In this document: positions 30,961-49,387 of the stretch, one piece after another
Layout of the letters: each line of letters opens with the position of its first letter
Position numbering within the stretch: the stretch's first letter is position 1
Origin: an uncultured cyanobacterium
GTDB taxonomy: Bacteria > Cyanobacteriota > Cyanobacteriia > Cyanobacteriales > Nostocaceae
NCBI GenBank assembly: GCA_903848645.1
Contig: CAINGU010000083.1
Location: 1-64,000 of the forward strand
Reading direction: 5' to 3'
Length of the DNA stretch: 64,000 bases
The notes under the pieces: model-generated
Databases searched by the model: none
Told to the model about the DNA's origin: nothing
Seen by the model: the letters and a program-made list of their open reading frames with translations, nothing else
Made by a program: the position numbers and the translations under genes

Positions 30961-31933
30961 ATCACTAGAACCTTTGGTAAGTGTCATTATCCCTACCTAT
31001 AATCGCCCAGAATACCTCAAACAAGCAATTACTAGTGCCGTTCAACAAACTTATCAAAATCTAGAAATTATAGTTTCTGATAATTGTAGTTCTGAAAATC
31101 CTCAAGCACTGGTTGAATCATTTCAAGACCCACGCATCAAATTTTGGCGACATGAACAAAATATTGGGATGCTGGGTAATCAATTTCATGGTTTTAAAAT
31201 TGCCACAGGAAAATATGTTGCTAGTCTCCATGATGATGATATGTGGAATCATGATTTTTTATCTAAACTTGTACCACATCTAGAAGCAAATTCTGATTTA
31301 ATTTTGGCATTTTGTGACCAATATATCATAGATGCTCATAGTAAAATTGATGCTGCTGCTACTGAACAAAATACTCGCAGTTATAAACGGGATCAAATCA
31401 CTCCTGGAGTTCATCAAAGTTTCACTCAAATTGGCTTAATTGATAAAAGTATTCCCACTGCGGCTGCTTGTGTAATTCGGAATGGTGTCTTAAATTGGGA
31501 TAGTATTCCTTCAGAAGTTGGAGGAATGTGGGATTTATATTTAACTTACCTTTGTTGTATTTCTGGCTATGGAGTTTACTATGTTCCCGAAAAATTAACC
31601 AAATATCGAGAGCATGAACAAACTGATACTTTGCTCAGTGGTAGTCGCAATATTCAAGCCAAAATCCGTAAAGGTAAAAGTGAGATATTCTGTTATCAAA
31701 CCTTTATGGAAGATCAACAGTTACATGAATTTAACTCCTACTTTAGAAGCAAATGGTTGGCAGCTAATACAACTTTAGGAATTGGGTTATTACGAGATCA
31801 ACAAATCACAGATGCTCGCCGTTATTTTTGGCAAACTTTAAGGGAACAAAAATTCAATTTACGAACTTTATCAGCTTTGATTCTCAGTTTTATTCCCCCG
31901 ACTGTAACGAATAAAATTTTGAAAGTTTCATAA
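30947..31933 (+). CDS. Glycosyltransferase family 2
   Basis: A 328-residue GT2 enzyme. LVSVIIPTYNRPEYLKQAI and LEIIVSDNCSSENPQ are diagnostic, and SLHDDDMWNHDFL supplies the metal-binding DDD. The C-terminus ends in a hydrophobic helix (LRTLSALILSFIPPTV) that may tether it to the membrane. Its ATG overlaps the previous stop. Confidence 0.9.
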   Translation: MLNIKSLEPLVSVIIPTYNRPEYLKQAITSAVQQTYQNLEIIVSDNCSSENPQALVESFQDPRIKFWRHEQNIGMLGNQFHGFKIATGKYVASLHDDDMWNHDFLSKLVPHLEANSDLILAFCDQYIIDAHSKIDAAATEQNTRSYKRDQITPGVHQSFTQIGLIDKSIPTAAACVIRNGVLNWDSIPSEVGGMWDLYLTYLCCISGYGVYYVPEKLTKYREHEQTDTLLSGSRNIQAKIRKGKSEIFCYQTFMEDQQLHEFNSYFRSKWLAANTTLGIGLLRDQQITDARRYFWQTLREQKFNLRTLSALILSFIPPTVTNKILKVS

Positions 31934-31958
31934 TTTATTAAATCACAAGAGGTGATGA

Positions 31959-33161
31959 GTGAAAATTTGCATTGTTACCCACAAAATTAAAAAAGGTGAT
32001 GGTCAAGGCAGAGTTAATTATGAAGTGGCTCAAGAAGTAATTCGTCGTGGTCATCATCTCACATTATTAGCTAGTGAAATTGCCCCAGAATTAGCAGAGA
32101 ATAGTGCTATTAATTGCATTTATATTCCAGTGGCAGGCTATCCTACGGAATTTATTCGCAATTTCATGTTTGCTAAAAAAAGCGCAGATTGGTTGCGTAA
32201 AAATCGGGCAAATTTGGATTTAATTAAAGTCAATGGGGCGATTACTATGGGTGCGGCTGATGTGAATGCTGTACATTTTGTGCATAGTTCATGGTGGCAA
32301 TCACCTGTCCATATTTCCCGCACTCGCAAAGATTTATACGGTTTCTATCAATGGTTATTTACTGCGGTTAATGCCTATTGGGAAAAACAAGCTTTCCGGC
32401 AATCTAAAATCATCATTGCTGTTTCCGAAAAAGTTGCCCAAGAATTAGTAAATATTGGTGTTAGTCGCCAAAAAATTCGCGTAATTGTTAATGGTGTAGA
32501 CTTACAAGAATTTACTCCTGGTGTCAGTTCTCGTACCTCATTAGGATTACCTGAAAATGTCAATTTGGCTTTGTTTGCCGGAGATATTCGCATTCCTCGC
32601 AAGAACTTAGACACCGTACTTCAAGCTTTGGTAAAAGTTCCTGAACTACATTTAGCAGTTGTCGGCGGCACTAAAGATAGCCCTTATCCCGCAATGGCAA
32701 AGGCTCTGAAGATTAGTGAAAGAGTGCATTTTTTAGGTTATCGCCATAATATGCCACAAATTCAACAGGCAGCAGATTTATTTGTATTTCCGTCCCGTTA
32801 TGAACCCTTTGGACTTGTAGTCATTGAAGCGATGGCTTCAGGTTTGCCAGTAATTACTGCCACTACTACCGGGGCTGCTGACTTACTCAATCCTGATTGT
32901 GGCATCGTTTTAGGCGATTGCGACGATATTGATGCTTTAGCCCATGCCCTTCACTTATTAAATAGCGATCGCTCACTGCGTCAACAAATGGGTAAAGTAG
33001 CCCGTACCATTGCCGAACAACATAGTTGGTCAACAATGGCACAAACCTATTTAGATATATTTGAGGAGTTAATCACCAATGAGAAACACAGTTCTCATCC
33101 CCACCTATCGCCGTCACCAAGACCTAGCCCGCTGCCTGAAAGCACTACAACAGCAAACTAA
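31959..33161 (+). CDS. Glycosyltransferase family 4
   Basis: A 400-residue GT4 enzyme with GTG start at 31959 after AAGAGGTGATGA. GDGQGRVNYEVAQEVIRRGHH, LALFAGDIRIPRKNLDTVL and FVFPSRYEPFGLVVIEAMASGLPVITA are the family landmarks, including the E-x7-E motif. The last 26 residues (Ser/Pro/His-rich) are encoded within an 83-base out-of-frame overlap with the next gene and look like read-through rather than conserved domain. A lost upstream stop or small indel near 33090 is possible. Confidence 0.88.
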   Translation: MKICIVTHKIKKGDGQGRVNYEVAQEVIRRGHHLTLLASEIAPELAENSAINCIYIPVAGYPTEFIRNFMFAKKSADWLRKNRANLDLIKVNGAITMGAADVNAVHFVHSSWWQSPVHISRTRKDLYGFYQWLFTAVNAYWEKQAFRQSKIIIAVSEKVAQELVNIGVSRQKIRVIVNGVDLQEFTPGVSSRTSLGLPENVNLALFAGDIRIPRKNLDTVLQALVKVPELHLAVVGGTKDSPYPAMAKALKISERVHFLGYRHNMPQIQQAADLFVFPSRYEPFGLVVIEAMASGLPVITATTTGAADLLNPDCGIVLGDCDDIDALAHALHLLNSDRSLRQQMGKVARTIAEQHSWSTMAQTYLDIFEELITNEKHSSHPHLSPSPRPSPLPESTTTAN

Positions 33162-34041
33162 ATCAGTTGATCAGGCGATCATTGTTGTTAGAGATACAGA
33201 TAAAGAAACTCGGCAGTTCCTCTGTAAATTTCCGTCCCACCTCCTGCCCCTAGAAATTGTCACCGTCACCCAGCCAGGAGTAGTAGCTGCACTCAACGCC
33301 GGACTAGCCCAAGTCCAGGGAGACATTGTTTCCATCACTGATGACGATGCCGCCCCTCACCCTGATTGGTTAGCTAAAATTAATACTCACTTTAGCGTAA
33401 ATAGCTCCATTGGCGGCGTTGGTGGCCGTGATTGGGTTTATCAAGGAGACAAACTAGAAGCTGGTTCTCGCTCCATAGTTGGTAAATTACAATGGTGCGG
33501 GCGCGTCATTGGCAACCATCATCTAGGAGTAGGCGCACCCCGTGAAGTTGATGTTCTCAAAGGTGTGAATATGAGTTTTCGCACCCAAGCCATCGGCAAA
33601 TTACGCTTTGATGAAAGAATGCAAGGAACAGGCGCACAGGTGCATTTTGAAATGTCTTTTACCCTCACCCTCAAACGAGCCGGATGGAAAATAATTTATG
33701 ATCCCAGTATTGCTGTAGATCACTATCCAGCCCAGCGATTTGATGAGGATCAACGTCATAATTTTAACGATACTGCATTAATTAACTTAGTCCATAACGA
33801 AACATTAGTTTTATTAGAACATCTTCCTCCCCTCCGTCAGGTTGTGTTTTTATCCTGGTCAGTTTTAGTCGGGACAAGAGAAAGTTTAGGAATATGTCAA
33901 TGGCTAAGACTATTTCCCAAACAAGGGCAACTTGCTCATAAAAAATTGCAAGCATCCTTACGGGGAAGGTGGTTAGGATATCAAAAATATAGAATTCAAT
34001 CGGCAAGATTTAACCTTGCCAAACACCATTTTGGCTATTAA
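33079..34041 (+). CDS. Glycosyltransferase family 2
   Basis: A 320-residue GT2 enzyme. RNTVLIPTYRRHQDLARCLKAL, the acidic motif SITDDDAAPHPDWL and GGVGGRDWVYQGDK followed by VNMSFRTQAIGKLRFDERMQGTGAQVHFE fit the family. ATG 33079 has GAGGAG upstream and lies inside the end of the GT4 gene. No membrane helix is needed to explain it apart from a short hydrophobic segment near 265-280. Confidence 0.88.
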   Translation: MRNTVLIPTYRRHQDLARCLKALQQQTKSVDQAIIVVRDTDKETRQFLCKFPSHLLPLEIVTVTQPGVVAALNAGLAQVQGDIVSITDDDAAPHPDWLAKINTHFSVNSSIGGVGGRDWVYQGDKLEAGSRSIVGKLQWCGRVIGNHHLGVGAPREVDVLKGVNMSFRTQAIGKLRFDERMQGTGAQVHFEMSFTLTLKRAGWKIIYDPSIAVDHYPAQRFDEDQRHNFNDTALINLVHNETLVLLEHLPPLRQVVFLSWSVLVGTRESLGICQWLRLFPKQGQLAHKKLQASLRGRWLGYQKYRIQSARFNLAKHHFGY

Positions 34042-34087
34042 TTAAGATCTACAAACACCCAAATTTTTAGAGAATATCGAGATCAAA

Positions 34088-35515
34088 GTGATTTCTAAAT
34101 CCATACTTTTCAACACTGTTTTAAAAGAACAATTTTCTCCCGAAGATCGAGCCGCCCAAGGTTGGATAATCATCCTGGGTTTTATCTTCTTAACAACAGC
34201 TTGCTACTTTACCAGTACAGCCAGTTTACGCCTCGTTTTTCCCGCTACGGCTTTGATAGCAGCCGTGTTTTTATACTTGCGGCATCCCATACTCTACATT
34301 GGTTTCACTTGGTGGATATGCTTTCTCACCCCCTTAATCACTCGTTTAGTTGACTATCGAGTTGGCTGGGATCCTACTCGACAAATGTTAATTGCTCCTT
34401 ATTTAGTGGTATTTATTACCATAATCACCTTCTTTAAACATCTACCTAGTGCCTTGCGTCAAGGTGGACTGCCATTTATTTTAGCTTTTATAGGAGTTTC
34501 CTATGGGTTGCTCGTTGGTCTGGTTTATAATCAACCACTCCCGGTAATTCGGAGTTTTTTAGATTGGCTAAGTCCGATAATTTTCGCCTTTCATCTATTT
34601 TCTAATTGGCGAGATTATCCTAGTTATCGTCAGCATCTGCAACGGATATTTGTTTGGTGTGTATTCATTCTTGGAGCTTATGGAGTCTATCAATTTGTTG
34701 TCGCTCCAGAATGGGACAAATATTGGTTACTACAATCTAAAATGTTTACCAGTGCTGGACAACCTATACCTTTTGGAATGCGCGTTTGGAGTACATTACA
34801 CTCACCAGGTCCATTTGGTACTGTGATGCAGGCTGGGTTGCTATTATTATTTACTAGTTCAGGCCCTTTAATTTTCCCCGCTTCTGCTGTTGGTTATTTG
34901 TCATTTTTACTATGCCAAGTCCGTACCAGTTGGGCAGGCTGGTTGTTAGGGATAATTATGATTTTTGGTGCGGTAAAGCCCCAGATTCAAATGCGCTTAA
35001 TTACCATAATTTTAGTGATGACAATATGTGTCGTCCCCTTGGTAACTATCGAACCTCTCTCTAAAGTTATTACCAGTCGGCTGGAAACTTTTTCTAATCT
35101 GGAAAAAGATGGTAGCTTTAAGGATAGATCGGCAGCTTATGACAGAAACCTGAGTTTAGCTCTTTCTAATATTGTTGGTAACGGCTTTGGAAATACCTGG
35201 AAGGTTAATGAAAAAACTGGGCAAATAGAGGTAGTTGTGATTGATAGCGGCATTTTAGATATGTTTTTTACCTTGGGTTGGATTGGTGCTATACCTTATA
35301 TTGGTGGGTTGCTATTAATGCTTATTAGTGTAAGTAAATACACTGAGGGTCGTTTTGATAGTTTTCTCAGTGCTGCGAGTGCTATTGGTATGAGTTCTTG
35401 CGCCCAGTTAATTATCTATAGCGGAATGCTGAGTATTGCAGGTATGATTATGTGGGGATTTTTGGCTATGGCTATGGCAGGACACAAATACTATCAACGT
35501 CCAGAAATTAGATAA
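34088..35515 (+). CDS. O-antigen ligase/polymerase-like membrane protein
   Basis: A 475-residue polytopic membrane protein (about ten to twelve hydrophobic segments), GTG start at 34088. The large loop near residues 215-245 and the later segment with TSRLETFSNLEKDGSFKDRSAAYDRNLSLALSNIVGNGFGNTW resemble the conserved periplasmic loops of the Wzy/WaaL family. It would polymerise or ligate exported sugar units at the periplasmic face. It closes the plus-strand polysaccharide island. Confidence 0.82.
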   Translation: MISKSILFNTVLKEQFSPEDRAAQGWIIILGFIFLTTACYFTSTASLRLVFPATALIAAVFLYLRHPILYIGFTWWICFLTPLITRLVDYRVGWDPTRQMLIAPYLVVFITIITFFKHLPSALRQGGLPFILAFIGVSYGLLVGLVYNQPLPVIRSFLDWLSPIIFAFHLFSNWRDYPSYRQHLQRIFVWCVFILGAYGVYQFVVAPEWDKYWLLQSKMFTSAGQPIPFGMRVWSTLHSPGPFGTVMQAGLLLLFTSSGPLIFPASAVGYLSFLLCQVRTSWAGWLLGIIMIFGAVKPQIQMRLITIILVMTICVVPLVTIEPLSKVITSRLETFSNLEKDGSFKDRSAAYDRNLSLALSNIVGNGFGNTWKVNEKTGQIEVVVIDSGILDMFFTLGWIGAIPYIGGLLLMLISVSKYTEGRFDSFLSAASAIGMSSCAQLIIYSGMLSIAGMIMWGFLAMAMAGHKYYQRPEIR

Positions 35516-40260: not shown

Positions 40261-40506
40261 TCAGTCTTCATGTTCACAACAAGATTTTTCTTTCACATCT
40301 GGAACAGGATCATAACCTCCTGGATGAAAAGGATGACAGTGTAAAATCCGCATCATACCCAGCCAACTACCACGAAATACCCCAAACCGTTCAATAGCTT
40401 GAATAGCATACAGAGAACAAGTCGGTTGAAAGCGACAAGTGGGGGGAAACAGAGGGGAAATAAATAAACGATAACCCTTAATTAGCCAAATCAATAATAT
40501 TTTCAT
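40261..40506 (-). CDS. yidD: Membrane protein insertion efficiency factor YidD
   Basis: An 81-residue protein with the full YidD pattern: [34 protein letters not shown]-type sequence (here [19 protein letters not shown]) and [14 protein letters not shown], with the three conserved cysteines. It assists YidC-mediated membrane insertion. It is divergent from the phytol-kinase-like gene, which starts 51 bases away. Confidence 0.95.
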
Positions 40507-40557
40507 GTCTAAATCGAATAAAGTAATATCAACCCTTGAAAATTCTTTCTTTGATCA

Positions 40558-41265
40558 TTGTTGAACACATTCCTTGGTTTAGAAATCCTTTCCCCATTGT
40601 CGCTGCAAATTGCCCCTGCTGCGGCTTGGGTAGGATTAATTATCTGCATTGCTTGGGTAGTTAGTCGTTTTACTGATAGCGAACCGGAAATCATTCGTAA
40701 AATCGTGCATATTGGTACAGGTAACGTAATTTTAATCGCTTGGTGGTTAGATATTCCCCCTGATGTGGGAATTACAGCTTCAGTTTTTGCGAGTATTATT
40801 ACTTTATTATCTTATAAATTCCCGATTCTTCCTGGTATTAATAGCATCGGCCGTCACAGTTTAGGCACATTTTTCTATGCTGTGAGTATAGGTGTTTTAG
40901 TGGGGATTTTTTGGCATTTACACCAACCCCAATATGCTGTTTTAGGAATTATGACTATGGCTTGGGGAGATGGATTAGCTGCTTTAATTGGGAAACGCTT
41001 TGGTAAACATAAATATCTAGTTTTTGGTTCTCAAAAAAGCTGGGAAGGTTCTTTAACAGTGACTTTCATTAGTTATTTTATTTGTGTGACTCTTTTACTG
41101 CTTACCCAAGGTAACATTTGGCAAAGTTGGATAGTTTCCTTAATTGTCGCCGTAATCGCTACGATTTTAGAAGCATTTTCTTTTTTGGGGATAGATAATT
41201 TAACCGTTCCTATCGGTAGTGCTACCTGTGCTTATCTGTTAACGCAGCTACTCTCTGGTTACTGA
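40558..41265 (+). CDS. Phytol/polyprenol kinase-like membrane protein
   Basis: A 235-residue integral membrane protein with seven or so helices. RKIVHIGTGNVILIAWW and MAWGDGLAALIGKRFGKHKY...KSWEGSLTVTF are the conserved motifs of the CTP-dependent phytol/dolichol kinase family (plant VTE5, Synechocystis slr1652). It would phosphorylate phytol released from chlorophyll so that it can be reused for tocopherol or chlorophyll. TTG at 40558 or 40561 is the only start near the conserved N-terminus; there is no ATG. Confidence 0.87.
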   Translation: MLNTFLGLEILSPLSLQIAPAAAWVGLIICIAWVVSRFTDSEPEIIRKIVHIGTGNVILIAWWLDIPPDVGITASVFASIITLLSYKFPILPGINSIGRHSLGTFFYAVSIGVLVGIFWHLHQPQYAVLGIMTMAWGDGLAALIGKRFGKHKYLVFGSQKSWEGSLTVTFISYFICVTLLLLTQGNIWQSWIVSLIVAVIATILEAFSFLGIDNLTVPIGSATCAYLLTQLLSGY

Positions 41266-41609
41266 AAAATTCCTGATCTACTTGAACTATAAAAATGAGT
41301 TTTTCTGTGATTAGAGATATCTAAAAATATAGATATTGAATTTTGTATTGAGCGAAAAATTTGAATAAATCCCTATAATCAGAGTTCTCTGTCAAAACCA
41401 AAAATAAATATTTTGTAGATTTTATCGAACTAAGATTAATCTTTTAATAATACTATTCTAGTAATAAAAAACTATTTTGTCTCTACTTTTAGAGGTAAAT
41501 TTACAAACTTTACTTTCTACCCACAGGTTTATGAATTATTAGGCAAGAATGCTTATAGTTGAATTGTTAGGTGGTCAAATACCTAATTACGTAAGTGAGG
41601 CTAATAATT
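41266..41609. other. AT-rich leader of the peptide export cassette
   Basis: About 340 bases, no gene. Apart from GTGAGG at 41595-41600, the ribosome-binding site of the next gene, nothing recurrent was found. The element conserved before the three later precursor genes is not recognisable here. Confidence 0.4.
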
Positions 41610-41981
41610 GTGTCAAATCAAATCAACACATCCGATTTGTTTGTTGCTTTATCTGATCAACAACAAGAGATAGTAACTGGTGGGGCTGACTTTGAACTAG
41701 CTGCTAGTAATTACGCGAATAAAGGATCAGCTTTACTGGGAACAAGTATCTCCGGTCCTCAAGGTAGCAGTGCTACTTCCGCAGGTAAGGCTAATACCAT
41801 CCTGACTGCGGGACAAGATTTCTTAGGTTTAGGTACAGACCTTCCCAACGGTGTCGGTGCTTTAGGTCCAGCGGTGCTACCAGGTGATGGAGGAAATGCA
41901 CCTGCAACTCCACTTGTAACACCTGCAACACCTATAACGCCTATAGCAACTGGAGTGGCCAGTGGAGGAATCCTTCAGTAA
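41610..41981 (+). CDS. Double-glycine-leader secreted peptide (CTB-type), long form
   Basis: The start is reassigned to GTG 41610: it gives MSNQINTSDLFVALSDQQQE with GTGAGG nine bases upstream, and aligns with the other precursors; the longer frame from 41595 would place the ribosome-binding site inside the gene. The 123-residue product has a leader ending IVTGG (about residue 25) and a 98-residue core rich in Gly, Ala, Thr and Pro, without cysteines. The leader/GG form is that recognised by peptidase-containing ABC exporters, and such genes follow downstream. The function of the core is unknown. Confidence 0.78.
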   Translation: MSNQINTSDLFVALSDQQQEIVTGGADFELAASNYANKGSALLGTSISGPQGSSATSAGKANTILTAGQDFLGLGTDLPNGVGALGPAVLPGDGGNAPATPLVTPATPITPIATGVASGGILQ

Positions 41982-42027
41982 GTATGGGCTAAAGCCGATA
42001 AGTTGCCCAATCTTAAAGTAGGATTGA

Positions 42028-42142
42028 ACTAGTACAGCAGGGCGCAATTAAAAATTAAAAATTAAACCCTAAAAAAGCAAATTACGCCAGCTTTTTAGAA
42101 GTTTTTAATGGTTAGTTATTTTTGCGGCTCTGCACTGCTAGT
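42028..42142. repeat. MITE-like element, CTAGTACxGCAGGGCG family, copy 2
   Basis: Begins with ACTAGTACAGCAGGGCGCAA and ends TTTGCGGCTCTGCACTGCTAGT, imperfect terminal inverted repeats of about 20 bases. Shares its interior (GCTTTTTAGAAG...AATGGTTAG) with the 5703-5813 copy. No coding capacity. Confidence 0.75.
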
Positions 42143-42431
42143 CAATACATTTTTTAGAGAATAAAGGGGGTTAGAGGAGATAATAGGAACTCGCTCAACG
42201 TAAGTGAGGACTTTGAGAGAGTTTGAGCCTTCCCCTCAATGTTCTTAACGCTTGATTAGCGTCAAAGATTTGAGAAAGATAATTCCCAATACTAGGGCAT
42301 AACTATCTCTACCCCCTTCACTAAATTATAACCTATGATCAAATTATTTTTCACAATGTGAATAGAGAAATTTGCTGGTTTTTATTTTCGCTAATTTATT
42401 ACCTAAGATAGTTACTTTTTAGTTACATGAT
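42143..42431. other. Spacer with weak inverted repeat before the HlyD gene
   Basis: AAAGGGGGTTAGAGGAGA (42163-42180) and TATCTCTACCCCCTTCA (42304-42320) can pair imperfectly across about 120 bases, so this may be a decayed inverted-repeat element. No gene is supported. Confidence 0.4.
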
Positions 42432-43997
42432 ATGAGTAATTTCTATCTGAGGTCAGACTATTCTAGTCCTAACAGAAGGTGTAATACCGTGAACTCCTTA
42501 CAGAGTCAAGATAGCCATTCTTGGTATAACTTCAACGACCTGAATACAGAGGATTTGCATATACTAGAAACTAATGAGTTTCTTCCCCATATTGGTAAAT
42601 GGATTCATATCGGTGGGGGAGTAATGATTACTATGTTTGTAGTGGCTGTAAGTCTCTCCTCTGTTCTTTATTACAACATTACAGTCAAAGTCCCTGCAAC
42701 TATCCGACCATTGGGAGAATTACGGTTAGTTGAATCTGCAATGACGGGAACTGTGAAAAAAATTGCAGTTAAGGAAGATCAGGTAGTAAATAAAGGAGAA
42801 ATTATTGCTTATATTGATGACTCCCAACTAAAATCTCAAAAAAGACAACTGCAAAATACTATTCAGCAAAGTCAATTACAATTTATTCAAATTGATGCTC
42901 AAATCAATCAAATCAATAATCAAATAATTGCTCAAATTAACTTAAATGACCGCACTATTATAGCTGCACAGGCTGAATTAACTGGAACTGAACGCAACTA
43001 TAAAGATCAGGGAATTAAAGCTAGTGCGGAAATGACACAAGCTCAAATAACTATAAATTTAGCAAAGGAGCAACTAGCAAGATTACAAAAAGAAAGGGTA
43101 TTAATAGCCACTGTCCAAGAAGCAGAAGCAGGTTTAAAACTCGCTATTTTACAGCGTGACCGCTTGCAAAATATAGTTAAATCAGGAGCAATAGCTCGGA
43201 ATTTAGTTGAGGAAAAAGAACAAGCTGTACAATCGGCTCAAGCTAAATTAGAACAAGCAAAATCTAGTGCTAAAAATCTCCGAGAAGAAAAAGAACAAGC
43301 CGTTAAATTAGCTCAAATAAACTTACAAAAAGCGAAAAGTGCCGTTAATCCCAGTCATGCAAATGTAACAGTAGCATTGGAAAGAATTAGCCAAGAAAAA
43401 GCCAGAGGTGAAGGTAATTTAGCAGCTTTAAAAAAAGAACGCGAAATATTAATTCAGCAACGTCTAGAACTGCAAAAACAACAAATTCGCACTCGTCAAG
43501 AACTACAACAGCTAGAAAATGAGTTGAATAAAAGTGTGATTCGTTCACCGGCTACTGGTACAATCATGCAACTTAAACTCCGCAACTCTGGACAGGTTGT
43601 ACAACTTAGTGAAGCACTGGCTCAAATTGCTCCTATTGATGCTCCGTTAATCATTAAAGCTCACGTTTCTGCCAAAGATATTGACAAAGTAAAAACAGGT
43701 CAACCAGTGCAAATGCAGGTTTCAGCTTGTCCCTATCCAGACTATGGAACTCTCAAAGGAATTGTGAAAACAGTGGGAGCAGATGTTTTAGCAACTACAC
43801 AAAATAATTCTATTATCAGTACACCCCAGATTGCTACTTACCAAATCAATATTGAACCACAAAGTTTATTTTTAGGAAAAGGAAATCACTTATGTTATCT
43901 CAAATCTGGTATGGAAGGACGTGCTGATATTATTTCTCGACGGGAAACTGTCATGCAATTTATCCTCAGAAAAAGCAAATTAATCACTAATCCATGA
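42432..43997 (+). CDS. HlyD-family membrane fusion protein
   Basis: A 521-residue adaptor protein. A short cytoplasmic N-terminus is followed by one membrane helix (about 62-80, MITMFVVAVSLSSVLYY). A biotinyl/lipoyl half-motif (VVNKGEIIAYID) leads into a long alpha-helical coiled coil (about 135-365), then the returning half-motif NKSVIRSPATGTIMQLKLRNSGQVV and a beta-barrel. It should connect the inner-membrane exporter to an outer-membrane TolC-type channel. No TolC gene is in the window. The ATG at 42432 has a weak ribosome-binding site. Confidence 0.9.
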   Translation: MSNFYLRSDYSSPNRRCNTVNSLQSQDSHSWYNFNDLNTEDLHILETNEFLPHIGKWIHIGGGVMITMFVVAVSLSSVLYYNITVKVPATIRPLGELRLVESAMTGTVKKIAVKEDQVVNKGEIIAYIDDSQLKSQKRQLQNTIQQSQLQFIQIDAQINQINNQIIAQINLNDRTIIAAQAELTGTERNYKDQGIKASAEMTQAQITINLAKEQLARLQKERVLIATVQEAEAGLKLAILQRDRLQNIVKSGAIARNLVEEKEQAVQSAQAKLEQAKSSAKNLREEKEQAVKLAQINLQKAKSAVNPSHANVTVALERISQEKARGEGNLAALKKEREILIQQRLELQKQQIRTRQELQQLENELNKSVIRSPATGTIMQLKLRNSGQVVQLSEALAQIAPIDAPLIIKAHVSAKDIDKVKTGQPVQMQVSACPYPDYGTLKGIVKTVGADVLATTQNNSIISTPQIATYQINIEPQSLFLGKGNHLCYLKSGMEGRADIISRRETVMQFILRKSKLITNP

Positions 43998-44003
43998 TTA
44001 ATT

Positions 44004-44068
44004 CCGCCCTAAAGGGGCGGGGTTTGTACCGAAAATTCCTAATCCAAAATCTAAAATCCAAAATTTTT
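44004..44068. repeat. Hairpin plus AATCTAAAAT tail repeat, copy 1
   Basis: CCGCC...GGCGG forms a short hairpin, followed by GGGTTTGTACC and a tail of AATCCAAAATCTAAAATCC. The same order occurs at 57860-57922. Lies in the gap between the HlyD and ABC exporter genes. Confidence 0.65.
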
Positions 44069-44085
44069 CACTCTTCTGAGTAATT

Positions 44086-46263
44086 ATGTTCAATATGCTC
44101 AATATCTTTAAAAATAATCAAAATTATCAGTGTACTTTACAGTTAAGTGAAGAAGACTGTGGAGCAGCTTGTCTAGTTTCCATTAGCAAGCATTACGGAC
44201 ATTTTTTAAGCATGATTAAAAGCCGTGAAGCTGTTGGTACTGGACAATTAGGAACAACATTATTAGGTTTAAAACGAGGTTCAGAAAATCTCGGTTTTAA
44301 TGCTAGAGCCGTGAAAGCTTCTCCAGAAATTATAGACAGAATTACAGAAATTACATTACCTGCAATTATCCATTGGCAAGGCTATCATTGGGTTGTTTTA
44401 TATGGTAAAAAAGGCAAAAAATACGTAATTGCTGATCCGGCTGTTGGACTGCGTTATTTGACCAAAGAAGAATTAACCGCTGCTTGGAATGGCGTAATGC
44501 TCTTATTAGAGCCAGATCCAGATCGTTTTTCCGAGCAACCCCAGGAAGTATCAAAAGGTGGAATAACGCGATTTTTTCGCCGCATTTTGCCCTATCGTGG
44601 CTTGCTAACTCAGGTTTTAATGATCAATATTGTCCTGGGTTTACTAGCTCTAGGAACTCCTGTTTTAATTCAATTACTCACAGATGATGTTCTCGTTCGT
44701 GGAGATGTACAGTTACTTACTGTTGTGGTTTCCGCAGTTGTCGTCATGAGTTTATTTGGTGGAGGTTTGCAAGTATTTCAAGCCTTAATGATTTCTCATT
44801 TTGGGCAAAGATTACAATTAGGTTTAGTTCTAGAATTTGGGCGTAAACTTCTGCAATTACCCTTAAATTATTATGAATCTCGTCGCAGTGGTGAAATCAC
44901 CAGCCGACTCCGAGATATTGGGGAAATTAACCAATTAGTATCACAGATTGTGATTGTTTTACCTAGCCAGTTTTTTATCGCTGTGATTTCTTTTGCTTTA
45001 ATGTTGTTTTATAGCTGGCAATTAACAATAGCAGTCTTATTAGTTGCTGGTTCTATGACTTTATCTACCTTACCTTTTTTACCAATTCTTCAACAAAAAA
45101 CCCGCAGTCTCTTAGTCTTAGGTGCAGAAAATCAAGGTGTTTTAGTAGAAACATTTAAAGGCGCACAGGTAATCAAAACTACAAATGCTGCTCCTCAATT
45201 TTGGGATGAATTTCAAAGTCGTTTTGGTCGTCTGGCGAATCTGGCTTTTAGCACAGTTCAAATCGCAATTATCAACGGGACTATTGCTAAAATCATCTCT
45301 ACAATTGGTGGTGTTATCTTGCTAGGATTTGGGAGTATTTTAGTAATTAAAGGCAATTTAAGCATCGGTCAAATGTTAGCTTTTAATGCTTTACAAGTGA
45401 ATGTTTTAGCTTTAATTAACTCATTAGTTGGCTTCGTTGATGAATATTTTCGCTCTCAAACCGCAGTTTCTCGATTATTAGAAGTTATTGATGCCACACC
45501 AGAAGTAGTAGGAGGAAGTCAAAAACCCATTGCCAAAATTTCTGGTGTGGCAGATATTAGTTGTTCCCATCTCAAATTTCATCACCCAGGTAGAGTAGAC
45601 TTGTTAGATGATTTTTCTATTCATATTCCTGGCGGAAAAGTAATTGCTTTAATTGGTAAATCTGGTTGTGGTAAAAGCACTTTAGCTAAATTATTAGCCG
45701 GGTTATATGTCCCAGATTCTGGAAATATCCGCATCGGTTTTTTGAATATCCAAGATATTGCTTTAGACTGTTACCGACAACAAGTAGTTTATGTTCCCCA
45801 AGAACCTCATTTTTGGAGTCGTTCAATTTTGGAAAACTTCCGTTTAGGAATACCTTCTATTTCTTTTGAAGAAGTAGTTCAAGCTTGTGATATTGCTGAT
45901 GCTGATGGTTTTATCAGTCAATTACCTAATAAATATCAAACCGTATTAGGAGAGTTTGGTGCAAATCTTTCCGGTGGACAAAGACAACGATTAGCGATCG
46001 CTCGCGGCATTCTCACAAATCCACCTATACTGATTTTAGATGAAGCTACAGCCGGATTAGATCCCATGAGTGAAGCTCATGTTCTAGATCGTCTTTTAGA
46101 ATATCGCGCAGGTAAAACCACGATTTTAATTACCCATCGTCCTAGCGTTATCCATCGCGCTAATTGGATTGTTCTCATCGAAAAAGGTCAGGTTCAAATT
46201 CAAGGAACTCCTGAGACATTTTTATCAAAATCTGGAGAGCATTTACAATTTTTGGCTGTATAA
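44086..46263 (+). CDS. Peptidase-containing ABC exporter (C39, PCAT)
   Basis: A 725-residue exporter. The N-terminal C39 peptidase (about 15-140) retains the oxyanion Gln (Q19), catalytic Cys in EEDCGAACL (C25), His in QGYHWVVLYG (H101) and Asp in IADPAVG (D117). The membrane domain with six helices spans about 175-450. The ATPase domain has Walker A GKSGCGKST, signature LSGGQRQRLAIARGIL and Walker B ILILDEATAGLD. It should cut leaders after GG and export the cores with the HlyD protein; five GG-leader genes surround it. Confidence 0.94.
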   Translation: MFNMLNIFKNNQNYQCTLQLSEEDCGAACLVSISKHYGHFLSMIKSREAVGTGQLGTTLLGLKRGSENLGFNARAVKASPEIIDRITEITLPAIIHWQGYHWVVLYGKKGKKYVIADPAVGLRYLTKEELTAAWNGVMLLLEPDPDRFSEQPQEVSKGGITRFFRRILPYRGLLTQVLMINIVLGLLALGTPVLIQLLTDDVLVRGDVQLLTVVVSAVVVMSLFGGGLQVFQALMISHFGQRLQLGLVLEFGRKLLQLPLNYYESRRSGEITSRLRDIGEINQLVSQIVIVLPSQFFIAVISFALMLFYSWQLTIAVLLVAGSMTLSTLPFLPILQQKTRSLLVLGAENQGVLVETFKGAQVIKTTNAAPQFWDEFQSRFGRLANLAFSTVQIAIINGTIAKIISTIGGVILLGFGSILVIKGNLSIGQMLAFNALQVNVLALINSLVGFVDEYFRSQTAVSRLLEVIDATPEVVGGSQKPIAKISGVADISCSHLKFHHPGRVDLLDDFSIHIPGGKVIALIGKSGCGKSTLAKLLAGLYVPDSGNIRIGFLNIQDIALDCYRQQVVYVPQEPHFWSRSILENFRLGIPSISFEEVVQACDIADADGFISQLPNKYQTVLGEFGANLSGGQRQRLAIARGILTNPPILILDEATAGLDPMSEAHVLDRLLEYRAGKTTILITHRPSVIHRANWIVLIEKGQVQIQGTPETFLSKSGEHLQFLAV

Positions 46264-46336
46264 ATCAACATTGTCAAAGTTTTTATTGTGCTATCAATTA
46301 ACCTAACTTAGTTACTTGTGCAAGGAGTAAAATAAT

Positions 46337-46672
46337 ATGCCTAAAAATACTCAATTTAATGATTATCAATTATTTAGATATCTTTCTGAACGAGAACAAG
46401 AATCTCTAGTTGGTGGTCAAACATCTCCTGTATTAGATGTATTACATATATTAAGTGAAAGTAAGTTATTCTTGCAAAAAACTGATATCGAAACCGAAGG
46501 GAAAAGCGATTTAACTCTAGCTTCAGGTGATTCTACTTCACAAACCACTAAATATAAATTTTCCCAACTTACCATGGCATTTTCTTTCACATTTGGTTTA
46601 ATAACAATTACCTCCAGTGGAGACAAATTAAGTAATTTATTACCCAACCTTTTCAATAATTTATTTTCATAA
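46337..46672 (+). CDS. Double-glycine-leader protein with hydrophobic tail
   Basis: A 111-residue protein. ATG 46337 has an AAGGAG site. The leader (MPKNTQFNDYQLFRYLSERE and on to LVGG, about residues 1-29) has the LSxxEQ...GG form of its neighbours. The core contains a polar region and a hydrophobic helix (LTMAFSFTFGLITI) followed by LSNLLPNLFNNLFS. It could be a membrane-active secreted peptide or an accessory/immunity-type factor; I cannot tell which. Confidence 0.7.
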   Translation: MPKNTQFNDYQLFRYLSEREQESLVGGQTSPVLDVLHILSESKLFLQKTDIETEGKSDLTLASGDSTSQTTKYKFSQLTMAFSFTFGLITITSSGDKLSNLLPNLFNNLFS

Positions 46673-46903
46673 AATAATGATGCCTAAACGTAACCATTTT
46701 TTTGTAGAGACAAATTTATTTTTTCTCTACATTTTCTAATATCTTATTAAGAAGAAATATTTTTAACATCTAAATATATAATATAATCTTCTATTATCAG
46801 GAATTAGATGAGCAGATAAATTAAATATGAGTCAAAAGAAAGAATTTTATCTAAATATATATAACCTAAGAACAATGATAAATTTTATAAATCTATAACT
46901 ATG

Positions 46904-46938
46904 GAATCATTTATTTTTGATAAAAAATCTTTATAAAA
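46904..46938 (+). promoter_or_regulatory. Shared upstream element of precursor genes, copy 1
   Basis: GAATCATT (46904-46911), 19 bases, then TTATAAA (46931-46937). The same two blocks with the same 19-base gap precede the precursor genes at 47748 and 48251. ACTATGGAATCATT extends the left block. TATAAA resembles a -10 element. It lies about 80 bases upstream of ATG 47016. Confidence 0.65.
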
Positions 46939-47015
46939 GAAGTGTAGGGGTTATTCACCTATTCATAAATATAGGCTAACAATCATGTCATCCCAATAAA
47001 GTGAGGTACATCATT

Positions 47016-47213
47016 ATGTCATTTCAAAATAATCAATCTAACTTGCTTGTAGAACTATCCACAGAAGAACAACAACTTTTATCTGGAGGATGTTACCAGT
47101 CTCCCCCATGCTGTAAACCGAAAAAACAAAAATGTTGTGGAAATTACCAAAAAGATGATCGATATAGACCCTCTGATAGGTATGAAAAGTATCCCGATAA
47201 TGGCGATGATTAA
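47016..47213 (+). CDS. Cys-rich double-glycine-leader peptide (CTB-type)
   Basis: The start is reassigned from GTG 47001 to ATG 47016: GTGAGG at 47001-47006 is then the ribosome-binding site, and MSFQNNQSNLLVELSTEEQQ aligns with the other leaders. The 65-residue product has a leader ending LLSGG (residue 25) and a 40-residue core with five cysteines (CYQSPPCC and KCC) and a Lys/Asp/Tyr/Arg-rich tail. The cysteines could form disulfides after export. No modification enzyme is adjacent. Confidence 0.78.
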   Translation: MSFQNNQSNLLVELSTEEQQLLSGGCYQSPPCCKPKKQKCCGNYQKDDRYRPSDRYEKYPDNGDD

Positions 47214-47238
47214 TATCTTCCTCAATAGGTACATTCTA

Positions 47239-47344
47239 TATAGCGGTATGCACTTGAATGCAATACAGTGATTAAATTGGAAAACCTATAGGGGCGGGGA
47301 AACCCCGCCCTCAATTGTATTGCATCCGAGCGATAACTGCTATA
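47239..47344. repeat. MITE-like element, TATAGCGGT/AACTGCTATA ends
   Basis: Left end TATAGCGGTATGCACTTG and right end CGAGCGATAACTGCTATA pair imperfectly; inside them TGCAATACA (47259-47267) pairs with TGTATTGCA. The centre holds a strong GGGGCGGGG-AAA-CCCCGCCC stem. 106 bases, no coding capacity. Confidence 0.75.
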
Positions 47345-47627
47345 ACCTGGTCTATCTTTGATAGTCTTAGTTTTTCAACCTTGTGGTTATAGAATGAGGA
47401 GAAATTTTCAGACAAATTGCTTGATATCAAGCATCAGCACTATCTTAGTCTCTGAATCTGTAGATATTGATATCTACCGTTGAGAAATAAAACAGAAACC
47501 TGCTAAAATTAGTGCCATAACTTTCTCCTCTTTCCTTTTTAATGGGACGCTTTAAAATTGTAAATCACCTATGGTTGTAATAGTATATATCTAGTTAAAA
47601 ATAAATGAAGCTATGAGTTTAACTACG

Positions 47628-47700
47628 TCAAAAGATAGAAATTATAAATTAATATTTACAACCATAGAATCATTATATTTATTAAAATCAAGCTTATAAA
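47628..47700 (+). promoter_or_regulatory. Shared upstream element of precursor genes, copy 2
   Basis: TCAAAAGATAGAAATTATAA (47628-47647), 19 bases, GAATCATT (47667-47674), 19 bases, TTATAAA (47694-47700). All three blocks and both gaps match the copy before 48251 exactly. The start codon follows 47 bases later. Probably promoter plus upstream binding site. Confidence 0.75.
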
Positions 47701-47747
47701 AAGATAGTAGGTTAACAATAGCTATTAACCAATGGAGGCTAACAATT

Positions 47748-47939
47748 ATGGTTGTTCAAATCAAAAACCTTGAATCAGATTTTCTGGAAGAGTTATCAAC
47801 TGAAAACCAGCAACTTATCTCTGGCGGTCACTGGGGTGGTGGCTGGGGTCGTCCCTGGAGCGGTGGCGGTCACTGGGGCGGTGGCTGGGGTCGTCCCTGG
47901 AGCGGTGGCGGTCACTGGGGACACCGCCGTCGCTGGTGA
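47748..47939 (+). CDS. Double-glycine-leader peptide with 14-residue His/Trp/Gly repeat
   Basis: A 63-residue precursor. ATG 47748 has GGAGG at 47734-47738. The leader (MVVQIKNLESDFLEELSTEN and on to LISGG, 27 residues) is followed directly by two copies of HWGGGWGRPWSGGG and the ending HWGHRRRW. The core is 36 residues with seven Trp, three His in the repeats and a basic tail. His/Trp/Gly repeats could bind metal or membranes; neither is shown. The coding DNA is GC-rich compared with the flanks. Confidence 0.82.
   Translation: MVVQIKNLESDFLEELSTENQQLISGGHWGGGWGRPWSGGGHWGGGWGRPWSGGGHWGHRRRW
47829..47920 (+). repeat. 42-base in-frame tandem repeat
   Basis: Units at 47829-47870 and 47871-47912 differ at only one base (GGT/GGC, synonymous), and a partial third unit (CACTGGGG) follows. 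The repeat encodes 14 residues, so gains or losses keep the frame. Confidence 0.9.
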
Positions 47940-48250
47940 TAAATTAACCTAGCCTAGTTTAACAACACGCGAAAGTCCCCGCCCTCAATGTATTGATATG
48001 GTGGGGATGAATAGCGGGGGTTGAGGATTACATCTGGAATTGATTTTTTACAATCATCAATCATTCAAAGCATTATCAAATAAAGATTTTATATTTTATT
48101 TTGCGGAGAATGAAGATGCTGTAAATCAAAAGATAGAAATTATAACTATTAGTTTCTAACTATAGAATCATTAAATTGATAGAAAAAACCTTTATAAAGT
48201 AAGCATGGGTGTATGACACCCAATAAAACAATTGAGGTCAACAATTATTT
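47940..48250. other. Spacer between precursor genes
   Basis: No gene. TCCCCGCCCTCAA near 47975 and AGCGGGGGTTGAGGA near 48011 can pair and may act as terminator for the 47748 gene. The second half carries the shared upstream element (48126-48198). Confidence 0.45.
48126..48198 (+). promoter_or_regulatory. Shared upstream element of precursor genes, copy 3
   Basis: TCAAAAGATAGAAATTATAA (48126-48145), 19 bases, GAATCATT (48165-48172), 19 bases, TTATAAA (48192-48198). Identical blocks and gaps to 47628-47700. The start codon at 48251 follows 52 bases later. Confidence 0.75.
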
Positions 48251-48445
48251 ATGTCAAATCAAAATATCCCATCTAATTTACTTGTGGAATTATCCATAGA
48301 AGAACAGCAACTTCTAGCTGGCGGATACCGAGGTTATAAAGATGATAGAGATGATAGAGATGATGGATATGGTGGCGGTTATAAACCTAAAAAATTTGGC
48401 AAAAATCGTAAGAAGAAGAAATATGGCAGTTGGTATGGTCGATAA
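48251..48445 (+). CDS. Double-glycine-leader peptide with Asp/Arg/Lys/Tyr/Gly-rich core
   Basis: A 64-residue precursor from ATG 48251, with TTGAGG upstream. The leader MSNQNIPSNLLVELSIEEQQ and on to LLAGG (about 25 residues) closely matches the 47016 leader. The 39-residue core has a KDDRDDRDDGYGGGYK acidic/Gly stretch and a basic NRKKKKYGSWYGR tail, no cysteines. Last gene of the precursor set. Confidence 0.78.
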   Translation: MSNQNIPSNLLVELSIEEQQLLAGGYRGYKDDRDDRDDGYGGGYKPKKFGKNRKKKKYGSWYGR

Positions 48446-48487
48446 CTATCAAAAATGAAGTTCATCTTCCCTCCTATCTCTTCCCTA

Positions 48488-49387
48488 CTACCTTTTGCTT
48501 AGTAACTCACCAATCCAATCAAGTAAAATCGGATTTACTAAATCAGGAGATTCATCTTGAGGACAATGTCCCACACCTTCTAAAGGAATAAAGTTTTGCA
48601 CTTGGGGAAAATTGGCTAACTCTCTACCTAAATTAATAGGTTCCCAAGGGTCAGCCGTTCCCCATAAAATAATCACTGGACAGGATAATATAGGTAATAA
48701 GTCTTCCGGTAAAGGACCACTGGAGTAAGCTGTAAAAGCCAAGAATACAGCCGCAGCCCCAGGATCTTTCGCCGGTGTCATCAAGATATCAACTAACTCA
48801 TCTGTCACCGCTTCCCCGTTAGCATAAGCCTGTAAAAGAATCTTTTTCACAGTTTTTGGTTTCGCTAATTGGCTAAAAAAGAAATCACCTATTGCTTTAA
48901 TCGCCAAAAAGTTTTGCAGAATTGGCGCACCAAATCGCTTCAGCCAAGGCAAATTAACTCGTTTACGATCATGTAATAACCGCAAAGAACAATTTAATAA
49001 AGCCGTTCCTAAAGCCATATCTGGGTTAATTACCGCCGCTTGCATTGCCACAATACAACCAATAGAATTTCCGATTAAAAATGCAGGTTCACCTACCACT
49101 TCCTGACAAAAATCTGCTACTTGTTGTCCCCAAGTTTCCAGCGTATAAGTAATTTTTTCTCCTGGTTTGGGTTTAGCTGAACCGCCAAAACCAATTAAGT
49201 CAATCGCATATACCCGGCAACTTTCTGCTAACGCTGGGATATTTTTGCGCCAGTGTCCCCAGGATGCACCAAAACCATGTATTAAAATTACAGCCGGTCC
49301 GGTATTGCCTTGAGTTTGGTAACAAATAGGAAAACCTTGCCAAATCCAGATTTGTGTAGAGGTAAATGTCTTTGTATCAGATTGCAT
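48488..49387 (-). CDS. Alpha/beta hydrolase
   Basis: A 299-residue protein from ATG 49387; upstream in-frame starts lie inside a repeat element and are unlikely, though ATG at 49402 is possible. Motifs: oxyanion HGFGASWGHW, nucleophile elbow GNSIGC, acid in WGTADPWEP and catalytic His in GVGHCPQDE. It resembles the cyanobacterial and plastid hydrolases near pheophytinase and epoxide-hydrolase-like enzymes; the substrate is unknown. The C-terminus points toward the peptide cassette, but the strands are convergent and no link is implied. Confidence 0.88.
   Translation of the reverse strand: MQSDTKTFTSTQIWIWQGFPICYQTQGNTGPAVILIHGFGASWGHWRKNIPALAESCRVYAIDLIGFGGSAKPKPGEKITYTLETWGQQVADFCQEVVGEPAFLIGNSIGCIVAMQAAVINPDMALGTALLNCSLRLLHDRKRVNLPWLKRFGAPILQNFLAIKAIGDFFFSQLAKPKTVKKILLQAYANGEAVTDELVDILMTPAKDPGAAAVFLAFTAYSSGPLPEDLLPILSCPVIILWGTADPWEPINLGRELANFPQVQNFIPLEGVGHCPQDESPDLVNPILLDWIGELLSKR

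What the first reader, a model, noticed from the sequence alone, without database searches (positions are those of the whole stretch)
41610..48445. Peptide export cassette with five leader-bearing genes and no visible modification enzyme
Five small proteins share a leader of the form (L/F)xxLSxxxQ(Q/E)...GG next to a HlyD adaptor and a C39-containing ABC exporter with an intact catalytic Cys-His-Asp set. Their cores are unrelated in composition. Cyanobacterial gene clusters of this general type are known (CTB bacteriocins), but I know of no defined activity for cores like these. The cassette lacks LanM, YcaO or radical SAM genes, so the products may be exported unmodified or altered by enzymes coded elsewhere.
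Basis: partly seen in the sequence, partly recalled or inferred. Interest (0 to 1): 0.75.

Follow-up and report, generated by a model that had tools for sequence, protein, structure and literature searches.

The report
Cyanobacterial small-protein export cassette
A cyanobacterium carries a conserved set of genes that looks built to cut and export five very different small proteins sharing one address tag; the machine is a known kind, but many of the small-protein genes, in it and its relatives, also share an apparently undescribed hairpin just in front of the gene, and their job is still unknown.

Summary
Exactly five leader motifs of the stated form occur in the window, all in this cassette, and none in 100 shuffles. 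They flank a HlyD adaptor and a C39-ABC exporter with Cys25, His101 and Asp117 in place. The cassette fits 'group III' of cyanobacterial bacteriocin clusters (Wang 2011). Precursor 1 passes the CTB-family cut-off; the other four do not. The exporter is in 16 of 16 same-genus genomes, own included; LanC-like and YcaO profiles find nothing in the genome. So the machine is ordinary.

(1) In 59 related loci the 'unrelated' cores fall into recurring types; Gly/aromatic/Arg/His-rich cores tend to sit last (31 of 47, against 6 of 94 elsewhere). (2) Two of the five window genes clearly, one weakly and one doubtfully carry an inverted repeat (possible 5'-UTR hairpin) after a -10-like box and 8-10 nt before the Shine-Dalgarno. 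It recurs in 57 of 59 related loci. I found no description of it.

Best functional guess: leader-cleaving export of mostly unmodified matrix or surface proteins, like EbfG/PteB of Synechococcus. Antimicrobial bacteriocins remain a serious rival.

The parts
41610..41981 (+). Precursor 1, CTB family (NF038167), 123 aa; leader ...LFVALSDQQQEIVTGG, core ADFELAASNYANKG...
   Evidence: (75.5 bits, cut-off 32)
42432..43997 (+). HlyD-family periplasmic adaptor, 521 aa
   Evidence: (HlyD_3, HlyD_D23)
44086..46263 (+). Peptidase-containing ABC exporter (C39 + transmembrane + ATPase), 725 aa, short type without CAP_ED domain
   Evidence: Cys25 codon 44158-44160, His101 44386-44388, Asp117 44434-44436
46337..46672 (+). 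Precursor 2, 111 aa, leader ...LFRYLSEREQESLVGG; core type found in 19 of the 59 close loci; predicted long beta-hairpin
   Evidence: (21 sequences aligned)
47016..47213 (+). Precursor 3, 65 aa, Cys/Pro/Lys-rich core (CYQSPPCCKPKKQKCC...)
47748..47939 (+). Precursor 4, 63 aa, core of 14-aa tandem repeats HWGGGWGRPWSGGG
   Evidence: (42-nt repeat, 98% identical)
48251..48445 (+). Precursor 5, 64 aa, Asp/Gly/Tyr then Lys/Arg-rich core
41558..41609 (+). Inverted repeat / possible 5'-UTR hairpin of precursor 1 (TTAGGT...ACCTAA, then SD GAGG)
   Evidence: seed; 56.6 bits, rank 1 in own genome
46935..46984 (+). Doubtful, degenerate copy upstream of precursor 3, before an abortive ATG at 46985
   Evidence: 19.4 bits, rank 6, within background; does not fold as the consensus hairpin
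47698..47747 (+). Weak copy upstream of precursor 4 (GGTTAA...TTAACC)
   Evidence: 26.4 bits, rank 3 in own genome, not a seed; six pairs at -3.8 kcal/mol, no better than shuffles
48196..48246 (+). Inverted repeat / possible 5'-UTR hairpin of precursor 5 (GGGTGTatgACACCC)
   Evidence: seed; 46.9 bits, rank 2
46886..46951 (+). Promoter-like repeat copy 1 (GAATCATT...CTTTATAAA)
47649..47714 (+). Promoter-like repeat copy 2
48147..48212 (+). Promoter-like repeat copy 3

Best explanation
A three-part, ATP-driven export cassette. The C39 domain cuts each precursor after Gly-Gly; the ABC part with HlyD and an outer-membrane channel coded elsewhere passes the core out of the cell. The five cores leave largely unmodified apart from possible disulphides, and act together as structural components of the cell surface or extracellular matrix, as EbfG proteins do in Synechococcus. 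Shown by sequence: machine, leaders, conservation, no LanC-like or YcaO match in the genome. Inferred: cleavage, export, lack of modification, matrix role. Also inferred: precursor genes have promoters of their own, and their mRNAs begin with a short hairpin just before the ribosome-binding site that sets mRNA stability or translation separately from the exporter (a DNA operator palindrome is the alternative).
For: Machine; one ORF of the OEP channel family elsewhere in the genome. Five leaders, none by chance. Conservation: exporter at 92-96% identity in the 15 other same-genus genomes, one copy matched over 519 residues only. No LanC-like or YcaO match. Core types recur: in 59 orthologous loci Gly/aromatic/Arg/His-rich cores (60% or more) are in the last slot in 31 of 47 and elsewhere in 6 of 94 (Fisher p 9e-14, loci not independent); tandem repeats in precursor 4. 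Precursor 2: two predicted 18-residue antiparallel strands, pLDDT 83-88 over residues 51-80. Precedent: EbfG1-4 and C39 transporter PteB, needed for biofilm, EbfG1-3 amyloid-prone (PMC4997328, PMC9981879). Hairpin: of the top 150 covariance-model hits in 87 loci, 134 lie directly before a GG-leader gene (47 seeds, 87 of 103 others). Folding z-scores without selection: -1.54 for 132 downstream short genes, -0.41 for stretches 100 nt further upstream, -0.21 for 19 precursor-2 genes.
Against: No direct evidence for a matrix role. No core was compared with EbfG sequences (none at hand). AlphaFold models are weak overall (mean pLDDT 54.5 and 62.7), and the precursor-2 model has no significant PDB match. 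The family is annotated as bacteriocin. Cores change fast, which also suits antagonistic peptides. For the hairpin: the reverse complement folds as well as the mRNA strand, so RNA and DNA roles are not separated; G-U against A-C mismatches favour RNA weakly in six core pairs (21 to 9, p 0.04) and not over all eight (40 to 32; the loop-closing pair is 2 to 12); 58 of 133 downstream short genes have no top-150 hit; genome G050, with 11 CTB-family matches, has no hit above 27 bits; the window's own hairpins, taken singly, are no more stable than shuffles.
Confidence: 0.45

Rival explanations
1. True bacteriocins: the cores are antimicrobial or allelopathic peptides against related cyanobacteria, exported by the same machine.
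For: NCBIfam name of precursor 1; Wang 2011 classes such clusters as bacteriocin clusters; a different CTB cluster of Nodularia is induced on phosphate starvation and its authors suggest allelopathy (passages); fast-changing cores.
Against: No obvious immunity gene among the ORFs of the cassette (by eye); five products at once, one a Gly/Trp repeat and others Asp- or Cys-rich low-complexity; the same core types kept in species after species; no activity reported in the passages I saw.
Confidence: 0.3
2. Signalling peptides between cells of a filament or population, read by a receptor, as with C39-exported pheromones of Gram-positive bacteria.
For: C39 exporters also carry pheromones (ComA is among the nearest solved C39 domains); HetC of Nostoc PCC 7120 is a C39 exporter proposed to export a regulatory peptide (passages).
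Against: Cores of 36-98 aa with low-complexity repeats are unlike pheromones; no receptor or kinase within the cassette (the large sensor-like ORF at 49857, judged by eye, was not tested).
Confidence: 0.12
3. The inverted repeat at the hairpin site is a DNA operator (palindrome ATAGGTGnnnnnCACCTAT near +1) for a dimeric regulator, not an RNA structure.
For: Core arms nearly invariant; reverse complement folds equally well; it would sit where repressors often bind.
Against: A few genes have perfect 15-17-bp stems of other sequence: L131, and L104 and L132, whose stems resemble each other (4 stems of 12 or more pairs in 273 stretches against 0.2 expected, one of the 4 lying over the promoter boxes instead; z -6.0, -3.2, -4.3). 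A fixed operator would not keep these. All nine pairs show changes on both sides (alignment fitted to the structure); slight G-U excess in the core.
Confidence: 0.35

Closest known systems
Group III cyanobacterial bacteriocin clusters (Wang, Fewer, Sivonen 2011, PMC3140520)
   Same: HlyD plus short-type C39 ABC exporter, several GG precursors, no LanM, no second ABC transporter; the paper's table lists group III in Nostoc, Anabaena, Nodularia, Cylindrospermopsis and others
   Different: The text I read (parts 1-3 of 5) describes no shared upstream element and no order of core types; it sorts precursors into NHLP, N11P, HetP, DUF37 and 'other'
CTB family bacteriocin, NCBIfam NF038167
   Same: Precursor 1 over the cut-off; leaders of 2, 3 and 5 resemble it weakly; family matched in 118 of 145 sampled genomes of the taxonomic family
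   Different: Precursors 2-5 do not reach the cut-off
EbfG1-4 / PteB, Synechococcus elongatus PCC 7942 (PMC4997328, PMC9981879)
   Same: Array of small GG-motif proteins beside a C39 transporter
   Different: Homology of the cores not tested; mature EbfG proteins are described as without homology to proteins of other cyanobacteria; biofilm role untested for this cassette
HetC of Nostoc PCC 7120 (PMC10986499)
   Same: C39 exporter of a filamentous heterocyst-forming cyanobacterium
   Different: HetC has no membrane-fusion gene and no GG-leader gene nearby (paper's words, passages)

Membership tests
Group III cyanobacterial bacteriocin cluster | Short-type exporter: C39 + ABC membrane + ATPase, no CAP_ED | tested here: met
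   these are the only domains over cut-off, 725 aa
Group III cyanobacterial bacteriocin cluster | HlyD adaptor present; no LanM, no C39-less second ABC transporter in the cluster | tested here: met
   no LANC_like match in the genome
Group III cyanobacterial bacteriocin cluster | Exporter falls in clade III of the C39 tree | not tested
   no tree built
CTB family bacteriocin (NF038167) | Curated score of 32 bits or more, precursor 1 | tested here: met
   75.5 bits
CTB family bacteriocin (NF038167) | Curated score of 32 bits or more, precursors 2-5 | tested here: not met
   14.8, 21.8, no match, 27.3 bits
NHLP / Nif11-type precursors | Match of a precursor to a curated NHLP or Nif11 model | tested here: not met
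   no such match for the five precursors at E 1 in NCBIfam or Pfam; adaptor and exporter match NHLP transport models below cut-off
Peptidase-containing ABC transporter (PCAT) | Catalytic Cys, His, Asp and Gln in the C39 domain | tested here: met
   alignment to PCAT1 structures
Peptidase-containing ABC transporter (PCAT) | Cleaves after GG and exports | not testable with these tools
   needs biochemistry
EbfG/PteB biofilm system | Extracellular products required for biofilm | not testable with these tools
   needs mutants and mass spectrometry
Known Rfam RNA element | Reaches a family's gathering score | tested here: not met
   (window 40500-49000): one sub-threshold match (sraA, 26.8 bits against 56) at an unrelated repeat

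The most novel reading that the evidence does not exclude
The precursors form a regulon marked by a previously undescribed mRNA element: a hairpin at the very 5' end of each precursor mRNA, conserved as a structure (its arms can be wholly different and up to 17 bp long) across Nostocaceae. It is duplicated together with promoter and leader, so that any new core placed behind it is expressed and exported: a plug-in site for evolving secreted small proteins.
Probability: 0.4. Interest if true: 0.6.

Novelty: new member of a known kind. Interest (0 to 1): 0.42.

Why it matters
The passages I read report no tested activity for CTB-type products, although 118 of 145 sampled genomes of this cyanobacterial family match the CTB model. 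Recurring core types and a shared upstream element give concrete handles: which core goes where, where transcripts may start, and how to look for unannotated precursors by DNA. If the products prove structural, many genes now called bacteriocins in bloom-forming cyanobacteria are misnamed.

Tried and rejected
Phosphate-starvation link: Nodularia spumigena CCY9414 has a CTB gene, nsp31980, with a mapped start site among the 50 strongest (PMC3610870, section 7 part 1) that is induced without phosphate (PMC9846622, passages). I located it (L181): it belongs to another type of CTB cluster, its start site is 20 nt before the ATG, and it has no hairpin, so it neither supports nor refutes the element here. 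That the second, non-responsive cluster named in PMC9846622 is the window-type cassette is a guess from locus-tag spacing.

RNA against DNA by strand: folding of the two strands does not differ for downstream genes (p 0.72) or clearly for first upstream genes (p 0.07). G-U against A-C counts are weak and mixed: with the structure model 74 to 43 over nine pairs (biased towards G-U); with the sequence-only model, after dropping seeds and minus-strand shadows (86 distinct rows), 21 to 9 in six core pairs but 40 to 32 in all eight. Window hairpins taken singly have z -1.0, -0.1, +0.5 and -1.5; the case rests on relatives. In one search six of the seven relative stretches lost part of their 5' arm through my coordinates; I repeated them.

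Structure: AlphaFold gave low confidence for precursor 1. The Foldseek hits of precursor 2 are all non-significant (best E 0.41); its resemblance to pore-toxin hairpins at E 0.5-0.6 is what a long hairpin can give, and I reject it. Pfam hits of the small proteins are all below cut-off.

Rows dropped: of the 80 loci, 59 were used for slot and element counts; 21 were left out (exporter 71% identity or less, or, for L136, cut by the contig end); 1 of the 21, L136, has a top-150 element hit. The leader pattern used to collect precursors misses divergent or frameshifted ones. In one search at most 140 upstream stretches were printed. One search counted stems in 273 distinct upstream stretches, 12 duplicates removed. 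Of 216 model matches only the best 150 entered the counts. Genome-wide model searches scored 150 first-look candidates per genome.
Full report
What is there. The window lies in a 5.4-Mb cyanobacterial draft genome; the named strains with the nearest exporter are Anabaena, Dolichospermum, Aphanizomenon and close kin. From 41.6 to 48.4 kb, all on the + strand: precursor 1, HlyD adaptor, C39-ABC exporter, precursor 2, precursors 3-5. The leader pattern matches five places in all six frames of the window, exactly these, and never in 100 dinucleotide shuffles. The C39 domain aligns with PCAT1 structures with Gln19, Cys25, His101 and Asp117 in place (which residues are catalytic is recalled, and one deposited PCAT1 domain carries Ala at the Cys position). 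The genome holds six C39-domain matches in all and one ORF over the cut-off of the OEP outer-membrane channel family elsewhere.

Conservation. All 16 same-genus genomes searched, own included, have the exporter; in the 15 others it is 92-96% identical, over nearly its full length except one match of 519 residues (the 15 neighbourhoods fetched). The order precursor 1 - exporter - precursor 2 - short precursors is seen in all 15, apart from one contig that ends after precursor 2 (the adaptor was not checked there). The CTB family is matched in 118 of 145 genomes sampled from the taxonomic family. Of 80 named loci I took the 59 with close, complete exporters; by the leader pattern they have 0 to 5 downstream precursors, mean 2.6.

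Cores. Within one genome the cores look unrelated, but across the 59 loci they recur as types: the precursor-2 type with FFQKTD...SQTTKY (19 genes); Gly/aromatic/Arg/His-rich (38); Cys-rich (26); a DITVxG...FPVRI type (15); acidic with a basic strand-like tail (13); three smaller types (16); 24 unassigned, some of which look like missed members (hand-made patterns). Gly/aromatic/Arg/His-rich cores (60% or more of residues) are in the last slot in 31 of 47 loci with two or more downstream genes and in 6 of 94 other positions (loci are related, so the p-value of 9e-14 is too good). In the window, precursor 4 is of that type and precursor 5, the last, falls short of it, so the rule is a tendency. 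Precursor 4 is a 42-nt tandem repeat.

Upstream element. The three last genes share an upstream repeat (66 nt in three copies at 61-73% identity, 73 nt in two at 75%) with GAATCATT and CTTTATAAA; that pair of boxes occurs four times in the genome, three of them here (the reversed pattern once). Behind it, and behind a different -10-like box at precursor 1, lies an inverted repeat, then a GAGG-containing Shine-Dalgarno and the start codon. In 87 genes with a stem of six or more pairs ending 15-36 nt before the start, 71 have a -10-like hexamer upstream, and in 65 of these it ends 4-8 nt before the stem, so the stem may begin near +1. Genes were selected here for having a stem and the DNA is A+T-rich; no shuffle control was run for the spacing.

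Tests of the element. Without selection, 25% of 273 upstream stretches have seven or more perfect pairs with a short loop, against 6.5% of shuffles and 12% of control stretches further upstream. A covariance model from 47 seeds chosen for their stems finds 216 matches in 87 loci at E 0.1. Of the best 150, 134 lie directly before a GG-leader gene (all 47 seeds and 87 of 103 others). Of the other 16, by my reading of the printed frames, 12 precede variant or decayed precursors (one of them an intact GG leader that the pattern missed) and 4 (L101, L116, L127, L136) precede short frames without a recognisable leader. By class, counting the best 150: first upstream CTB genes 33 of 39, other upstream genes 4 of 23, downstream short genes 75 of 133, precursor 2 0 of 19; 57 of 59 close loci and 1 of 21 others have one. 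Seeds are 45 of those 112. In four other whole genomes the six matches above 40 bits, in three genomes, lie by position at or within about 8 kb of CTB-family genes (not all read), while matches elsewhere reach 27 bits; the fourth genome, G050, has 11 CTB matches but no strong element. In the window's own genome the four copies rank 1, 2, 3 and 6, at 56.6, 46.9, 26.4 and 19.4 bits, with other matches up to 21.9. The first two are seeds; the fourth is not distinguishable from background.

RNA or DNA. On the fitted alignment 80.4% of 1130 cells pair, all nine pairs have double changes, and slid versions reach 52.8% at most (fitted and seed-selected, so it leans to the structure). With a sequence-only model, non-seed rows show 21 G-U against 9 A-C in the six core pairs (p 0.04), but 2 against 12 at the loop-closing pair and 40 against 32 over all eight. 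Without selection, 132 downstream stretches have mean folding z -1.54, but their reverse complements have -1.62. The better argument for structure is that a few genes keep perfect stems of 15-17 bp of other sequence: L131, and the mutually similar L104 and L132. Rfam has no family over its gathering score here. I found no description in searches of an open-access library; most subscription papers are not in it.

Function. No modification enzyme is seen in the cassette, and LanC-like and YcaO profiles find nothing in the genome. No obvious immunity gene is seen (by eye). The closest functional precedent is EbfG1-4/PteB: small GG proteins, efficiently secreted only with an intact C39 transporter, needed for biofilm, EbfG1-3 amyloid-prone (PMC4997328, part 1 of 5; PMC9981879, passages). 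I therefore favour a matrix or surface role at 0.45, bacteriocin 0.3, signalling 0.12. Of the two precursors modelled, only precursor 2 gives a locally confident long beta-hairpin, with no significant structural match.

Verdict. An ordinary, well-conserved member of a known class of cyanobacterial export cassettes, of unknown function, with an apparently unremarked upstream element that deserves a bench test.

Noticed in passing
window 46985-47016: Upstream of precursor 3 an ATG opens a frame of four codons that stops (ATG TCA TCC CAA TAA), followed by a second SD and ATG. Same-genus loci L068 and L070 show a truncated leader at the matching spot; it looks like deletion of a neighbouring precursor that left its promoter to the next gene.
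   Followed up: partly
window 47227-47344: Inverted repeat with a GGGGCGGGGAAACCCCGCCC centre between precursors 3 and 4, weakly like Rfam sraA below threshold; MITE-like, and by eye a similar piece stands before precursor 2 in L067.
   Followed up: no
L016 (own genome contig 41), 1989-7320: Second, paralogous cassette: exporter 64% identical, HlyD and three short precursors with LF(T/N)xV(S/P)xEQQE...GG leaders, two of them weak CTB matches; a response-regulator-like ORF (by eye) lies at 273-968.
   Followed up: partly
window 30947-35515: Glycosyltransferase-type ORFs and an O-antigen-ligase-like ORF (Wzy_C just below its cut-off), i.e. exopolysaccharide-type genes, about 6 kb upstream of the cassette; whether the neighbourhood is conserved was not tested.
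   Followed up: no
L075 (own genome contig 66, near 56308): The only other place in the genome with the GAATCATT-N-TTATAAA box pair; what lies downstream was not read.
   Followed up: no
L110:10770-10854: Upstream of a last-slot gene two mutually exclusive stems can be drawn by eye, reminiscent of a switch; folding supports only the first.
   Followed up: partly
L181:5915-6183 (genome position 3264182 on the - strand is the mapped start): nsp31980 of N. spumigena CCY9414: a strongly transcribed CTB gene with a 20-nt leader and no hairpin, so CTB genes seem to be of at least two regulatory types.
   Followed up: yes
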